Shown here: piece by piece, positions 4,054 through 9,134 of the stretch
Layout of the letters: each line of letters starts with the position of its first letter
How positions within the stretch are numbered: the first letter of the stretch is position 1
Assembly (NCBI GenBank): GCA_027366525.1
Contig: DAHXKG010000012.1
Span: 1-55,141 of the forward strand
Length of the DNA stretch: 55,141 nucleotides
Reading direction: 5' to 3'
Source of the DNA: a candidate division FCPU426 bacterium
Lineage (GTDB): Bacteria; Oederibacteriota; Muellerivitia; Muellerivitales; DAHXKG01
The notes under the pieces: generated by a model
What the model was told of the DNA's origin: nothing
The model's database searches: none
What the model saw: the letters and a program-made list of their open reading frames with translations, nothing else
Made by a program: the position numbers and the translations under genes

Positions 4054-5601
4054 ATGGAAAAAATATTATTGAAAATCACAGAATCATTTAAAAAATTTTT
4101 TTTAACAAGTCTAATGATTACCATGATGTTGAATTTAGTGGCTTCACTTCAGGCGTATCCTATTCATTTAACTCTTCTTTTTACCGGTGATACACATGGT
4201 CAAATCACTCCTTTTTGGAATCATGCCCATACGCAACAGTGGGGGGGCGTTTCTCGCCGAATGACCTTAATTCGCCAAATTCAAAATGAAGTCGGCAAGA
4301 ACCATGTTTTGTTATTAGACAGTGGGGGTATTTTCCAAGGAACAGCACTCTCGCATTTTACGCAAGGTCAAGCTGTTTATTCCAGCTATCAAACCATGGG
4401 CTATCAAGCGGTCGTTTTGGGTAACCATGATTATGATTATGGAGAAGATTTTATTTTGCACTTAAAAGACGCTTTGAACTTTCCATGGCTTTCATCAAAT
4501 GCCATCATGCCTGCGTATTCGCACAATTTTGTGAAGCCTTTTATTTTGGAATACAAAGGTGTTCGGATTGCTATTTTAGGGTTGACTAATCCGCATACCA
4601 ATGTTGTGACGGGATTTAACCGCACGCAGGGTCTCCGATTTGATAGTCCATGGCAAGTCGCAGCAGGCCTGCATGCCATTCTGATTAAAAATGCTGATTT
4701 TTTTATTGGCTTGACGGATTTATCCTTGAGTCAACTTCAACAAGTGGCGCATAAAGATACATTTTTTTCAGTTATTATTGGAGGGCGATCTCATCGAATT
4801 TTAAAAAAACCTATTTGCTCTCAAGAGGCCGATGGTCAGGTCACGAGTCCGATTTTAGTTGAGACGGGGAATCGGGGAAGATACCTCGGACGATTGGATT
4901 TGACTCTAACGGGAAGTCCCGAGAATGGTTTTAGGGTTCAATATTTTCATTACCGCATGATCCCAATTAATGACCATATAGTGCCTGATGCTAAACTGCA
5001 AACGATGGTTCAAGCCAGTTTTCAAAAATTACCGATAGGTATTCATGATCCATTAACTGTTTCGAAGCACTATTTTAAACTATCGAATACAAGCGAATCG
5101 GTCATTGGACATTTAACCGCAGAGGCCATGAAAAAAATGGATCAAGGTCAAATCGCATGTATCAATAGTGCCGCATTTCGTGGAGGAATACCGCAGGGAA
5201 CAATTACGCGAGAAAATTTATATCATATTTTCCCATTTAGTTATAAATTAACAACACTTGAAATTTCCGGGTATGACCTTCAACGGCTTTTGGACGCAAC
5301 GTTTTTTCAACGAGGCACTGGGGCTTTTTTGCAAGTTGCAGGAATGACAATAAAAGATGATCATAAAAACCTTTTGGTGAGTATCAATGGCAATCCCTTA
5401 AATGATCATCGTTATTATAAAATGATAACTTCGGATTATTTGGCTCAAGGTAATGGTGGATATGCGTTTTTAAAAACCATTCATCAAATACCCAATGCTG
5501 CTGCAGTGACTTCCATTCGACGCTTAATTGAAAAGAAGCTTCAATCGAGTGTCACTTTTTCTGCTCAAAATTCTGATAATTGGATATTTGGAAAAAAGTA
5601 A
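4054..5601 (+). CDS. Secreted 5'-nucleotidase-like protein, metal site degraded
   Basis: A two-domain protein of the UshA/YfkN family with a signal peptide (hydrophobic segment at residues 15-33, likely cut after SLQA-34), so periplasmic or surface located. The metallophosphatase domain keeps FTGDTHGQ (D46, H48) and GNHDYDYG (N124, H125). Three other ligand positions differ: the family's DxGD is DSGG at 89-92, the expected THL is TDL at 221-223, and the expected GHSH is GRSH at 244-247. The C-terminal nucleotide-binding domain is recognisable (NSAAFRGGIPQG near 371, FPFSYKL near 393) but also diverged. It may bind nucleotides without hydrolysing them. Its stop codon lies 14 bases before the left end of an insertion element. 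Confidence 0.88.
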   Translation: MEKILLKITESFKKFFLTSLMITMMLNLVASLQAYPIHLTLLFTGDTHGQITPFWNHAHTQQWGGVSRRMTLIRQIQNEVGKNHVLLLDSGGIFQGTALSHFTQGQAVYSSYQTMGYQAVVLGNHDYDYGEDFILHLKDALNFPWLSSNAIMPAYSHNFVKPFILEYKGVRIAILGLTNPHTNVVTGFNRTQGLRFDSPWQVAAGLHAILIKNADFFIGLTDLSLSQLQQVAHKDTFFSVIIGGRSHRILKKPICSQEADGQVTSPILVETGNRGRYLGRLDLTLTGSPENGFRVQYFHYRMIPINDHIVPDAKLQTMVQASFQKLPIGIHDPLTVSKHYFKLSNTSESVIGHLTAEAMKKMDQGQIACINSAAFRGGIPQGTITRENLYHIFPFSYKLTTLEISGYDLQRLLDATFFQRGTGAFLQVAGMTIKDDHKNLLVSINGNPLNDHRYYKMITSDYLAQGNGGYAFLKTIHQIPNAAAVTSIRRLIEKKLQSSVTFSAQNSDNWIFGKK

Positions 5602-5615
5602 GCATTGTTTTTCAC

Positions 5616-5633
5616 GGTGTGTCTCAATTTGAA
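5616..5633 (+). repeat. Left terminal inverted repeat of IS1-like element
   Basis: GGTGTGTCTCAATTTGAA. It matches the complement of 7533-7551 apart from one missing base and one A/G difference. Confidence 0.65.
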
Positions 5634-5691
5634 TAAATGGTCGATTAGCAAGATGCTTGACCGTTTAGAATTAAATCCCTAAGATAGTAAT

Positions 5692-5916
5692 ATGAAAAAA
5701 CGAGACAAAGAAGATTTTACAAAAGACGCTTTTAGGGTATTTCAAGAAGCGATTGGCGAAAAACCATCAAAAAACCAAATAAAAGCCGCTATGTCCTACA
5801 TGGGACGAATGGGAGGCTTAAAGGGTGGAAAAGCGAGAGCAGAAAGTTTATCACCGGATCGACGGAAAGAAATAGCTAGAAAAGCCGCACAAAAAAGATG
5901 GAATAAAAATGATTAA
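5692..5916 (+). CDS. Small basic KGG-type protein
   Basis: A 74-residue lysine/arginine-rich protein. Its C-terminal half has the glycine-rich segment GRMGGLKGGKARAESLSP followed by RRKEIARKAAQKRW, a pattern seen in small KGG or 'histone-like' bacterial proteins of unknown function, often near mobile genes. It is the only intact reading frame inside the IS-bounded segment. Its stop overlaps the ATG of the downstream protease pseudogene (5909), so the two were probably translationally coupled. DNA or RNA binding is plausible from charge alone, but nothing in the sequence proves it. Confidence 0.7.
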   Translation: MKKRDKEDFTKDAFRVFQEAIGEKPSKNQIKAAMSYMGRMGGLKGGKARAESLSPDRRKEIARKAAQKRWNKND

Positions 5917-6546
5917 GGATTTCAAAGATAGTCCCTTTAACAAGTTAATAAGCAAAGTTAATCAAGCCCCAGAAACACGCAACGTGTAATCCGAGAAATT
6001 GAAAAATATTTAAAAGATCAAGTTGTTACTTTTTCCACTTCATTCAGCAAACCGAATGTGGTGATTACTGATGTAGATGCTGAAATGCTTGAAAGTGTTT
6101 TATTAGCCTAAACTAAAGATCAAAAACTTTATTTAATTTTAAATTCATCGGGTGGTGATATTTTAGCGGCTGAAAGAATTGTAAATCTATGTAGATCATA
6201 TTTTCCAAGCGAATTTGAAGTTATTGTTCCACATATGGCATAATCGGCTGGAACAATTATTTGCATTGGTACAAACGTCATTCATAGGAGCCAAACTTCT
6301 GAATTCGGTCCAACTGATCCTCAGTTTTATTATGTGGATAATAAGGGAAAACAGCAGGCTAGTTCCGCTCAAGATTATATAATTTCTTACGAAACCCTAT
6401 TCAACGAAGCCCGTTCGGGTCAATATTCGGTTATCCAACCTTATATGCAACAACTTGACAAATACGATGCTCGTTTAGTTCAAGAAATAAAAGTGGCTCA
6501 ACAGCTTTCCAAAAAAGTTGCTGTTCGACTATTACAAAATAAATGA
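5909..6546 (+). pseudogene. SDH-type (ClpP-fold) serine protease, broken
   Basis: A remnant of the SDH proteinase family, membrane-associated serine peptidases with a ClpP-like fold. The start MIKDFKDSPFNKLISK is in one frame and shifts near base 5980 into the frame reading QRVIREIEKYLKDQVVTFST. There follow LNSSGGDILAAERIVN, VIVPHMA, SAGTIICIG and TSEFGPTDPQF, in the order seen in intact homologues. Two in-frame TAA stops interrupt it, at 6109-6111 and 6241-6243. The second sits directly before the TCG codon of the conserved SAGT serine, where homologues usually have Lys. The 3' part (6334-6546) is still open but lacks the catalytic region. Confidence 0.82.
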
Positions 6547-6792
6547 TGAATGGTAAACAAGAACTTGAAATTACAAAAGCTATAGAGATATTTTTAATTC
6601 AAAAAAAATCATTATCACATGGCAGAGTGATTACAAGAGAGGAAGCAAAAGCAATTGGACTTAATGTTTCGGAAATCAATAAGAACAAAAGAATAGGATT
6701 GTTTGTGAGAATTATATGTAAGGTCAAATTGGATGACTGGAAATCAATGCGAAAAGTTAATAGAATCAAGTACAATAAGTGTAAGGAGTTAA
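6543..6792 (+). pseudogene. Companion of the SDH protease, broken
   Basis: A small gene starting at ATG 6543 inside the protease stop codon. Its beginning, GRVITREEAKAIGLNVSEI, is intact and resembles the short protein often encoded after SDH-type proteases. Near base 6685 the likely frame changes to one reading KE*DCL*ELYVRSNWM, in which TAG and TGA stand where Trp codons (TGG) would be expected, ending at TAA 6790-6792. The original frame stays open into the transposase remnant, but that longer product looks artificial. The family assignment is from memory of such neighbourhoods and is moderate at best. Confidence 0.5.
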
Positions 6793-6845
6793 GCCTTTAT
6801 GAACGAGACAACCCGAAACAATTCACGATTTATTTTCTGAAAATA

Positions 6846-7522
6846 GCCAGTTCTATAAAAAACAAGAATGTTATCGGCATAAATAGTAAACGTGTTCAAC
6901 GCGATGAAATTTGGAGCTTTTGTTATGCTAAGCAAAAAAACATCCAGTAATCTTAAAAATCCGAAAAGCAGGTGATGTTTGGACTTGGACAGCCACTGAC
7001 GCCGATTCAAAGCTAATATCAGCCCCATGGTAGGGGGGGAGAGTGATTCAGACTCAGCTATTCCTCTCATGGACGATTTACGCACAAGACTGACTAATCG
7101 GATTCAATTAACCACCGATGGCCACAAAGCCTATTTAGAAGCCGTTGAAGGAGCTTTCGGCGGTAACATAGATTATGCTCAACTGATTCAGCTTTATGGA
7201 TCTTCCGCTGATTACGTCAAGGGTCGTTATAGCCCCACTGAATGTACGGGAGCCCGCAAAACCCCTGTATCCGGCAAGCCCGAAGAAGCCCATATCAACA
7301 CAAGCTACGTTGGACGGGCTAACCTTTCGATGCGGATATGAATGCGCCATTTTACTCGTCTAACAACGCTTCTTGAAAAAGATGGAAAATCACTGTTATG
7401 TTTTGACATTATATTTCATGTTCTATAACTTCGTTAGGGTTCATAAGATCTTACGAGTTAGTCCAGCAATGCAAGCTGGTTTGACCGACAAGCTTTGGGA
7501 AATGGCTGACATTGTGGCTTAA
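6846..7522 (+). pseudogene. IS1-family transposase remnant
   Basis: Fragments in several frames join into an IS1-type DDE transposase: SKRVQRDEIWSFCYAKQKN (stop at 6948), GDVWTWTATDADSK in a second frame from 6971, LTTDGHKAYLEAVEGAFGG in a third frame from 7027, then MRHFTRLT after an in-frame TGA (7339-7341), and finally HCYVLTLYFMFYNFVRVHK to a stop at 7520. The first two catalytic Asp positions (RDEIW, TTDGH) survive. The conserved Glu of VERQNL is Gly here (VGRANLSMR). The N-terminal helix-turn-helix part is missing. With at least three frameshifts and a lost catalytic residue it cannot be active. Confidence 0.85.
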
Positions 7523-7532
7523 TTGATAAAGC

Positions 7533-7551
7533 TTCAAACTGAGACACTACC
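7533..7551 (-). repeat. Right terminal inverted repeat of IS1-like element
   Basis: The complement reads GGTAGTGTCTCAGTTTGAA, pairing with 5616-5633. It starts 10 bases after the transposase remnant's final stop. Confidence 0.65.
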
Positions 7552-7594: not shown

Positions 7595-7646
7595 GCCTTT
7601 TTTGTTAAGTATTTATAGTTAAAATTTTGTAACTTGGATCTTGAAT

Positions 7647-9134
7647 ATGGTTCAAAAGTCGCCATCTCGAAAAACACGAATTCCCAAAATAAAGATTTTA
7701 TTTGTAGCTTCAGAGGTAGTTCCTTATGCCAAAACAGGGGGATTAGCCGATGTTGCTGGAGCTTTGCCAAAAGCGTTAGCGGAATTAGAGTGCGAAGTGG
7801 CTATTGTGATGCCAAAATATCAGAGCATTTCAGATTCAAAATATCGTCTTTCGCCTTTAATATCACAAATGTGGGTCCCTATGGGAATGGGGGACGTGGA
7901 TGCAAGTGTTTTTCAGTCATTCATTGGGAATGATCAGGTTCCAGTTTATTTTATACAAAACAATCATTATTTTGATCGTGATCAACTTTACGGAACTTCG
8001 GATGGCGATTATCAAGATAATGCAGAACGATTTGCGTTTTTTTCCCGGTCGATCTTTTCCTTGATGAAAGAATTAAATTGGTATCCCGATATTTTGCATT
8101 TGAATGATTGGCAAACCGGGTTAGTAGCGGCTTATCAAAAAAATTTTTATCGCCAAGATGCCCACTTTAGTAAAATGAAAACATTATTTACAATTCATAA
8201 TCTTGCTTATCAAGGATTATATCCCAAATATTTCCTGCCCATGACTGGATTAGGATGGGAAGAATTCACAGCGGATCGAATCGAATATTATGATCAAATC
8301 AGCTATTTAAAAGCAGGTTTGGTTTATTCAGATTGTTTGACAACCGTTTCTCCGACGTATGCTGATGAAATTCAAACCGATGAGATGGGTTCGGGATTAC
8401 AAGGGGTCTTGCGGTCACGGACGAAGAATTTATTCGGCATATTGAATGGAATTGATCAAGACGAGTGGGATCCTGCGATCGATAGTTCTTTTCCCTATAC
8501 AGTAAAAAATTTAAAAAACAAACAAGAGGCTAAGCGAAAGCTGCTGGCTGAGCAAGGGTTGCGCTATGATCCTCAAACTCCCATTTTTGGTTTAATTTCA
8601 CGGTTGACGAATCAAAAAGGCTTAGATTTAATTTTTGATATTTTGGAGCCATTTTTGTCGATGGATATCCAATTGATTATTTTAGGAACAGGGGATGTAC
8701 GGTATCATCAGATGTTAGAGGACTTTAAAAATAGATTTCCAGAAAAAATCGGACTTAATCTTAAGTTCGATAATCGTTTAGCCCAGTTAATTTATGCAGG
8801 AAGCGATATTTTTTTAATGCCATCACGATTTGAACCATGTGGACTTGGCCAAATGATTGCAATGCGATATGGCACCATTCCTTTGGTTAGAAAAACAGGC
8901 GGCTTAGCAGATACCGTTAAAAATTTTTCACCCAATGCGAAAGAAAGCAATGGTTTTGTTTTTGAAAATTATTCAGGTCCAGATTTATTATCGTGTACAA
9001 AAAAAGCGGTTGAAGCTTTTCACCAACCTAAACTTTGGAAATTTTTAATTCAAAATGCAATGAAATGTGATTTTTCTTGGAAAAACTCTGCCAAAGAATA
9101 TTTGAAACTGTATTTGAATTTACAAAAATCCTAA
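7647..9134 (+). CDS. glgA: Glycogen synthase (ADP-glucose), GlgA
   Basis: GlgA adds glucose from ADP-glucose to the non-reducing end of glycogen. The GT5-type protein has its N-terminal substrate loop KTGGLADVAGALPKAL near residue 29, a DWQTGL/HNLAYQG middle and the C-terminal catalytic EPCGLGQM followed by KTGGLADTV. Its length (495 residues) is normal. I chose ATG 7647, 9 bases after a GGA; a TTG six bases upstream is the alternative. It is a single gene with its own promoter. No glgB, glgC or glgP is in the window. Confidence 0.93.
   Translation: MVQKSPSRKTRIPKIKILFVASEVVPYAKTGGLADVAGALPKALAELECEVAIVMPKYQSISDSKYRLSPLISQMWVPMGMGDVDASVFQSFIGNDQVPVYFIQNNHYFDRDQLYGTSDGDYQDNAERFAFFSRSIFSLMKELNWYPDILHLNDWQTGLVAAYQKNFYRQDAHFSKMKTLFTIHNLAYQGLYPKYFLPMTGLGWEEFTADRIEYYDQISYLKAGLVYSDCLTTVSPTYADEIQTDEMGSGLQGVLRSRTKNLFGILNGIDQDEWDPAIDSSFPYTVKNLKNKQEAKRKLLAEQGLRYDPQTPIFGLISRLTNQKGLDLIFDILEPFLSMDIQLIILGTGDVRYHQMLEDFKNRFPEKIGLNLKFDNRLAQLIYAGSDIFLMPSRFEPCGLGQMIAMRYGTIPLVRKTGGLADTVKNFSPNAKESNGFVFENYSGPDLLSCTKKAVEAFHQPKLWKFLIQNAMKCDFSWKNSAKEYLKLYLNLQKS

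What the first reader, a model, noticed from the sequence alone, without database searches (positions are those of the whole stretch)
5616..7551. IS1-like element that carried a KGG/SDH-protease cassette
Near-identical inverted ends of 18-19 bases bracket a 1.94 kb segment. Only its last third is transposase. The rest is a KGG-type gene, an SDH-type protease gene and a third small gene, translationally coupled by overlaps. IS1 elements normally carry nothing but transposase. A protease cassette travelling inside one would be a new kind of passenger, possibly a defence or addiction module. Seen directly: ends, gene remnants and overlaps. Inferred: that they moved together.
Basis: partly seen in the sequence, partly recalled or inferred. 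Interest (0 to 1): 0.7.

Follow-up and report, generated by a model that had tools for sequence, protein, structure and literature searches.

The report
Dead jumping gene with protease passenger
A worn-out bacterial jumping gene here still carries a small basic-protein gene and a broken protease gene; intact relatives in other bacteria carry the same kind of small gene next to exchangeable passengers that are often anti-virus or toxin-antitoxin genes.

Summary
The observation largely holds and the main inference is supported. Window 5616-7551 is a decayed IS1-type transposon with a passenger. Its right end equals the consensus end of a large family (GGTAGTGTCTCAGTTTGAA, 19/19); the left end lacks a base. 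In 5 of 5 same-order genomes read there, the nucleotidase-glgA gap is empty. The 'third gene' is not a gene: it is the frameshifted SDH C-terminus, a small-ORF remnant and a transposase fragment. Passengers are normal in this branch: of 80 genome loci with a related transposase, 67 have an end pair around it and 57 an exact 8-bp target duplication (shifted controls: none). Of 86 transposase-bearing elements chosen for that duplication (genome and viral contigs), 81 carry a KGG gene, usually near the left end; 8 elements, plus a named plasmid copy, carry an SDH-type protease. Other cargo is enriched in defence and toxin-antitoxin families over matched flanking ORFs. KGG co-diverges with the transposase, whereas cargo is scattered over its tree, nearly at random. 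I found no description of this KGG-transposase family in the open papers searched; the main IS reviews were not held. This copy is dead: stops, frameshifts, no convincing target duplication. That its cargo is defence is inferred.

The parts
5616..5634 (+). left terminal repeat, one base short of the family consensus GGTAGTGTCTCAGTTTGAA
   Evidence: consensus
5692..5916 (+). KGG gene, 74 aa, intact frame; carries both conserved parts of the transposon-borne KGG family (RD..A..V....GE and GGLKGGKARA..LS..RR.EIA.KAA..RW)
   Evidence: highest identity 56%, to the KGG protein of element L156
5909..6792 (+). SDH-type (ClpP-like) serine protease pseudogene: frameshift near 5986, TAA 6109-6111, TAA 6241-6243, frameshift ~6543, frameshift ~6675 and further stops
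   Evidence: 84% aa identity over 185 residues, 75% nt identity over 1069 bases, to the intact gene region in G002
6799..6860 (+). remnant of a small ORF that follows SDH in G002 (63 aa, ...ETIHDIFPAESKSYKK...); end approximate
6846..7525 (+). IS1-like transposase remnant lacking about the first 51 codons, in several frames with stops
7533..7551 (-). right terminal repeat, identical to the family consensus
4054..5601 (+). flanking gene, nucleotidase by my reading of the sequence (left side of the empty site)
   Evidence: name recalled, no family call
7641..9134 (+). flanking gene, glgA by my reading of the sequence (right side of the empty site)
   Evidence: name recalled, no family call

Best explanation
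The segment is the dead remnant of a cargo-bearing IS1-type transposon. The intact form has 19-bp ends, a small basic KGG gene near the left end, an exchangeable passenger slot between KGG and transposase (sometimes a second slot to the right), and a single-ORF IS1-like transposase. The transposase moves everything between the ends and makes an 8-bp target duplication (the duplications are shown in relatives; the act is inferred). Here the cargo was an SDH-type ClpP-fold protease plus a small ORF, inserted between the nucleotidase and glgA genes, and it then decayed. Because KGG co-diverges with the transposase while cargo mostly does not, KGG is most likely a second core component (a DNA-binding regulator or helper of transposition; inferred). 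The protease cassette most likely acted as a defence or toxin-antitoxin-like module that gave host or element a selective hold (inferred from the cargo of relatives).
For: Ends. Empty site: nucleotidase-glgA gap 78-343 bp (to the first aligned glgA codon) in 5 of 5 same-order genomes fetched, 2039 bp here, 103 bp without the element. Same architecture with exact 8-bp duplications: 80 genome loci, 67 with an end pair, 57 with the duplication; shifted controls 0 of 201 distinct comparisons (one search prints 402 because each was counted twice). 106 elements in all, 86 with transposase, 91 with KGG, 81 with both. KGG 81 hits in 269 kb inside against 7 in 678 kb outside. SDH cargo in 8 elements and in a named plasmid element with the duplication AAGCCGAG on both sides. 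PADLOC: RmrA 14, PD-Lambda-2_B 11, RmrT 5 of 146 cargo ORFs, against 5 families with at most 6 hits among 146 length-matched flanking ORFs. KGG-transposase distances: rho 0.62, n 80, largest of 999 permutations 0.23; 0.56 among 961 pairs with different cargo. Cargo labels on the transposase tree: 29 changes, shuffled mean 30.1, as low in 66 of 200. Horizontal origin: SDH 84% identical to G002, while IleRS is 56% and nucleotidase 35%.
Against: No convincing target duplication and a damaged left end at this copy. The genome holds no second copy, so movement of this very unit is not seen. The nearest SDH (G002) sits without recognisable ends in 14 kb and in a genome without a related transposase. 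None of the 8 SDH-bearing elements has a close relative of this SDH (27-39% identity over 76-316 residues to the G002 protein). No PADLOC model hits the window's SDH or KGG, nor the SDH cargo of L205 or L044. KGG similarity also follows cargo class after allowing for the transposase (0 of 1999 permutations as low), so KGG may be partly tied to cargo. One cargo class, PD-Lambda-2 type, is clustered on the transposase tree (6 changes, shuffled mean 9.3, 3 of 500 as low), and transposases of the same cargo class are slightly closer than chance (0.038).
Confidence: 0.82

Rival explanations
1. A plain IS1-type element landed beside, or recombined with, a resident KGG-SDH cassette; the association here is accidental.
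For: G002 has the KGG-SDH-small ORF cassette without recognisable ends in 14 kb and no related transposase in its genome.
Against: The cassette lies between both ends; the site is empty in 5 of 5 relatives read; the window KGG is of the transposon-borne type; KGG, cargo and transposase between ends with duplications is the usual arrangement in relatives, with SDH in 8 of them and on a named plasmid.
Confidence: 0.1
2. KGG is part of the cargo (for example its regulator or antitoxin) and not of the transposition core.
For: KGG-SDH with an 8-base overlap occurs outside a recognisable transposon in G002; KGG similarity follows cargo class beyond what the transposase explains; a KGG-like stretch begins P63C-type cargo proteins (L022).
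Against: One KGG family goes with many unrelated cargo types; its divergence follows the transposase also between elements with different cargo (rho 0.56); element L156 holds KGG and transposase within 1365 bp.
Confidence: 0.3
3. The SDH cassette has nothing to do with defence; it is a housekeeping-type or phage-derived protease picked up at random.
For: A relative of the SDH reading is found in 37 of 192 genomes searched (most not examined for transposon ends); the reading also matches head-maturation-protease families weakly; no PADLOC model hits it.
Against: SDH is scattered over the transposase tree (8 changes for 8 rows) among elements whose other cargo is enriched in defence and toxin-antitoxin families over matched flanking ORFs.
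Confidence: 0.35

Closest known systems
IS1 family (single-ORF transposases named 'IS1 family transposase' by NCBI)
   Same: Transposase matches NF033558 transpos_IS1 and PF03400 in 15 of 16; several plasmid relatives are annotated IS1 family transposase; short ends; 8-bp duplication.
   Different: Below the curated cut-offs for the member shown (58 bits against 100; 19.1 against 24.1). Elements are 1.3-4.3 kb, median 3.2 kb, with KGG and cargo; classical IS1 is about 0.77 kb with two overlapping frames (recalled).
tIS, insertion sequences with passenger genes (term seen in passages of PMC7986276), and the IS1595 family
   Same: Passenger genes between the ends of an IS-type element. Siguier et al. 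[quoted passage not shown]
   Different: The IS1595 model matches more weakly than IS1 (22 against 58 bits for L015). A near-constant KGG gene plus interchangeable defence-like cargo is not described in anything I could read; the IS reviews were not held.
Tn3-family transposons with toxin-antitoxin passengers (PMC7157771, listing and abstract start only)
   Same: Toxin-antitoxin passengers carried by a transposon.
   Different: Tn3 has another kind of transposase and larger elements (recalled); here the near-constant partner is KGG.
Tn7-like transposons with defence cargo (PMC8649781, listing and abstract start only)
   Same: Highly diverse defence cargo.
   Different: Here a few genes in about 3 kb and a single transposase gene.
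RosmerTA (PMC10440598, passages read)
   Same: Relatives carry full-length RmrA-like cargo (L211: residues 1-364 on model positions 1-362 of 363, 7.9e-124).
   Different: The window's own cargo is SDH, not RosmerTA.

Membership tests
IS1 family | IS1-type DDE transposase | tested here: inconclusive
   15 of 16 match transpos_IS1 and DDE_Tnp_IS1, but below curated cut-offs for the member shown; IS6, IS1595 and IS481 models match more weakly. The window's own fragments alone match no family.
IS1 family | short inverted ends and 8-9 bp target duplication (feature recalled) | tested here: met
   Relatives: 57 of 67 end pairs with an exact 8-bp duplication. Window: ends yes, duplication not convincing.
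tIS (passenger-bearing IS) | genes unrelated to transposition between the ends | tested here: met
   in the window SDH.
tIS (passenger-bearing IS) | the whole unit moves together | tested here: met
   Relatives by duplications outside the passenger; for the window copy only by the empty site. No movement was watched.
IS1595 family | IS1595-type transposase | tested here: not met
   Best NCBIfam match of L015 is IS1 (58 bits) over IS1595 (22 bits, cut-off 75); 10 of 16 match IS1595 at all.
SDH_protease (PF01972) | ClpP-like SDH domain | tested here: met
   41.9 bits against a cut-off of 31.3, read with X at the stops.
SDH_protease (PF01972) | functional gene | tested here: not met
   Stops and frameshifts in the window; G002 relative intact.
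known anti-phage systems (PADLOC) | match to a described system | tested here: not met
   Window KGG and SDH: none; 6543-6878: AbiA 0.0011, judged chance.

The most novel reading that the evidence does not exclude
A widespread family of about 3-kb transposons, here called KGG-IS1 elements, is a dedicated shuttle for single immune or toxin-antitoxin modules. Its core is two genes, an IS1-like transposase and a KGG protein that helps or regulates transposition. The slot between them is refilled so often that cargo is nearly random with respect to transposase ancestry, and relatives without a transposase reading move in trans. SDH-type proteases are one of its recurrent, still unrecognised immune cargos.
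Probability: 0.5. Interest if true: 0.82.

Novelty: new variant of a known kind. Interest (0 to 1): 0.7.

Why it matters
If true, a very small transposon type, annotated in the two plasmid records read only as 'IS1 family transposase' beside hypothetical or loosely named genes, is a systematic carrier of anti-phage and toxin-antitoxin modules. Its ends could then be used to find new defence genes: the 73 cargo ORFs without a relative in the set (some will be spurious) are candidates. It also makes two questions directly testable: what the KGG family, which has no convincing Pfam match here, does, and how an IS swaps cargo while keeping its core.

Tried and rejected
Third gene as a separate coupled gene: rejected. 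A second copy of the element in the own genome: none (in one search the 15-mer with up to 2 mismatches gives 13 places against 2 for the reversed control, only the two known ones exact). The own family holds no other genome. Transposase in the phylum: own plus one genome, 2 of 45; that one (G018) has it near a contig start, so its left side cannot be read. Closer SDH relatives in viral contigs: none confirmed. KGG in Pfam: two families hit one of 58 members each at E 0.002-0.007, judged chance; no PDB relative up to E 1; model three helices, pLDDT 82.8, pTM 0.41, so I did no fold search. Promoter word TGCTTGAC: 39 of 81 stretches upstream of the transposase, 1 of 79 upstream of KGG, 42 of 1620 control stretches; the window and G002 have it upstream of KGG, unexplained. 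My first end-detection script missed the true ends because it looked too near the transposase; replaced.

Selection and losses to keep in mind. Of them 13 had no end pair by the script and 10 had a pair without exact duplication. Its shifted control repeats each comparison, so 402 means 201 distinct. The 106 elements were chosen for an exact duplication. Where no transposase was called, an element was oriented by its KGG gene, so strand agreement is counted only on the 81 with both. Cargo set A2: 146 of 163 ORFs (the two longest of 110 aa or more per element, of 184); the 17 left out by hand are 15 of 113-156 aa and two transposase-like ones of L246 and L254. Some ORFs are probably spurious. 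PADLOC and Pfam counts are per family and may share members. Cargo class labels in the tree are my names for phmmer clusters; checked members: RmrA L028, L211 and PD-Lambda-2_B L026, SDH by blastp, P63C in 4 of 5 records of that cluster, none in that of L246; 'AAA' rests and inspection. The tree used 80 of 86 transposase elements plus the window piece and G018; 33 of 82 rows had no label, and one row with two labels was left out of changes, which gave 28 for 48 rows. Of 20 elements without a transposase call, L246 and L254 do hold one, and L107, L153, L175 look like copies of one another.

Paper searches: (10 of 10 used). Passages were read only of PMC10440598 and PMC7986276; everything else is listing only.

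Full report
What is there. The segment 5616-7551 has inverted ends GGTGTGTCTCAATTTGAA and GGTAGTGTCTCAGTTTGAA. The shared 15-mer matches exactly only at these two places in the window and in the genome, and the right end's 19-mer appears in none of 100 shuffles of the window. Inside are an intact 74-aa KGG frame (5692-5916), a broken SDH-type protease and a broken IS1-like transposase that lacks about its first 51 codons. The names nucleotidase, glgA, IleRS, STAS and dinB for other genes are my reading of the sequences; no family call was made for them.

The third gene. The frame 6543-6950 is not a third coupled gene. Its first part matches phrog_11747 at 199-258, and the preceding frame matches the same 290-position family at 12-195. 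An intact homologue in a genome of the same order (G002) is one protein of 295 aa across both; the DNA is 75% identical over 1069 bases, from inside KGG to past the SDH stop. After the SDH stop the window keeps a remnant of the small ORF that follows SDH in G002 (ETIHDLFSENSQFYKK against ETIHDIFPAESKSYKK). Transposase sequence follows at once, so an internal deletion removed the end of the small ORF and the start of the transposase (inferred). The KGG-SDH overlap of 8 bases is real and present in G002 too.

The empty site. Of 8 same-order genomes, 7 have a nucleotidase match; I fetched the region in five. In G001, G002, G003, G004 and G006 the order STAS gene, nucleotidase, glgA is kept. From the nucleotidase stop to the first aligned glgA codon there are 343 (G006), 284 (G004), 202 (G003), 78 (G002) and 103 (G001) bases, 5 of 5 without an insertion. 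The window has 2039, or 103 without the element. A target duplication at the window copy is not convincing (one search prints the flanks).

A family of elements with the same ends. A transposase piece of the window found 39 related viral-contig loci. Many have the same kind of ends, with the left one usually well over 1 kb upstream of the transposase. A genome scan gave 574 confirmed relatives, the best 80 kept. Of these 80, 67 have a pair of ends around the transposase motif and 57 of those an exact 8-bp duplication; shifted controls gave 0 of 201 distinct comparisons. Pooling genome and viral loci, 106 elements have an exact duplication: 86 with a transposase, 91 with KGG, 81 with both. Transposase-bearing ones are 1323-4251 bp long, median 3239. 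The consensus end is exact in 42 of 86 left and 44 of 86 right ends. In 79 of the 81 with both, KGG is on the transposase strand, and in 78 it also starts within 900 bp of the left end, median 246 bp. KGG hits number 81 in 269 kb inside and 7 in 678 kb outside. In 78 of 79 the KGG-transposase gap exceeds 400 bp, and in 27 of 79 there is also more than 400 bp right of the transposase.

Named examples. On a plasmid of Acidiphilium multivorum the ends GGTAGTGTCTCAGTTTGAA and GGTAATGTCTCAGTTTGAA with AAGCCGAG on both sides enclose KGG, an SDH-type protein and an 'IS1 family transposase'. On a plasmid of Mesorhizobium loti two GGTAGTGGGTCAGTTTGAA ends with CGCTGGTG on both sides enclose a KGG gene annotated 'histone H1', a helix-turn-helix gene and the transposase.

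SDH is a recurrent passenger. The G002 SDH finds cargo of 8 elements at E below 1e-8 (L044, L205, L231, L213, L021, L024, L267, L239), at 27-39% identity. A further hit (L262, 0.002) was not counted. In L044 KGG, SDH and transposase follow each other on one strand as in the window, with a further ORF before KGG and two on the other strand after the transposase; in L205, L213 and L231 SDH is on the other strand. So the window's SDH is of the G002 type, not that of any sampled element.

Cargo. Among 146 cargo ORFs Pfam finds HTH_3 20, Peptidase_M78 16, P63C 14, AAA_22 9, SDH_protease 8, nSTAND1 8, SocA_Panacea 5, N6_N4_Mtase 3, NYN 3, PemK 2 and others. PADLOC finds RmrA 14, PD-Lambda-2_B 11, RmrT 5, mad8 5, PD-T4-5 4, PtuA 4, MTase_II 4 among the 25 of 301 families shown. 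For 146 length-matched ORFs from the flanks of transposase-bearing elements it finds 5 families with at most 6 hits. Single checks: L211 is RmrA over its full length (7.9e-124), L028 RmrA (2.6e-122), L026 PD-Lambda-2_B (6.3e-45), while the P63C-type L022 and the SDH of L205 have no PADLOC hit. RosmerTA is described as a phage-defence toxin-antitoxin system with an ImmA protease antitoxin in PMC10440598 (passages).

Core and cargo. Over 80 elements the KGG and transposase distances correlate (rho 0.62; the largest of 999 permutations is 0.23), also among 961 pairs with different cargo (0.56). On the transposase tree the cargo classes need 29 changes against a shuffled mean of 30.1 (as low in 66 of 200); SDH needs 8 for 8 rows. 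The exception is the PD-Lambda-2 type, which is clustered (6 changes, shuffled mean 9.3, 3 of 500 as low). L021 (SDH) and L247 (PD-Lambda-2 type) have transposases 91.5% identical. So cargo is exchanged while KGG largely stays with the transposase. Against this, KGG is more alike among elements with the same cargo class even after allowing for the transposase (0 of 1999 permutations as low). Of 20 elements with ends and duplication but no transposase call, two do hold one; ten of the 20 have KGG. The rest may move in trans (inferred).

Origin of the window copy. SDH is 84% identical to G002, while IleRS is 56% and the nucleotidase 35%, so the cassette most likely moved horizontally. The transposase is found in 2 of 45 genomes of the phylum, G002 not among them.

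How it works. Shown: ends, duplications in relatives, near-constant KGG, variable cargo, empty site, decay. Inferred: the transposase moves the unit as in IS1; KGG helps or regulates; SDH with its small partner was a defence or toxin-antitoxin-like module. The KGG model is three helices with low pTM and does not decide its function.

Known or new. Passenger-bearing insertion sequences (tIS) are a known kind (PMC7986276 passages), as are Tn3 and Tn7-like transposons with such cargo (listings). I therefore call it a new variant of a known kind.

Noticed in passing
L285 (G002:C2:200000-214000), reverse strand, from about rc 7396: Just downstream of the intact KGG-SDH cassette in G002 lies a partial duplicate of the start of a dinB-like gene (name recalled), whose full copy is further along the same contig: a possible trace of the cassette's own insertion or of recombination.
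   Followed up: no
L098, L118, L148, L149, L165, L173, L177, L181 (coordinates): Elements with the same ends, exact 8-bp duplications and KGG, some with cargo, but no transposase reading (0.8-3 kb): likely non-autonomous cargo carriers.
   Followed up: partly
L016:2952-4448 and L017:2851-4410: Cargo reading that looks like an N-terminal-nucleophile, proteasome-like hydrolase (label recalled from the motif, no family call).
   Followed up: no
upstream of transposase genes in the elements: Conserved promoter-like word TGCTTGAC, often followed by AAGCATA, a possible operator; 39 of 81 against 42 of 1620 control stretches. In the window and G002 the word precedes KGG instead.
   Followed up: partly
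L022:3585-4625 and cluster 0: P63C-type cargo proteins can begin with a KGG-like stretch (KGGKARA..LPPERRKEIAK.AA.ARW in L022), as if KGG had fused to cargo.
   Followed up: partly
L220 and L231 (one MAG); L255 and L262 (one Nitrospirales genome): Single genomes hold more than one of these elements, with cargo of different sizes.
   Followed up: no
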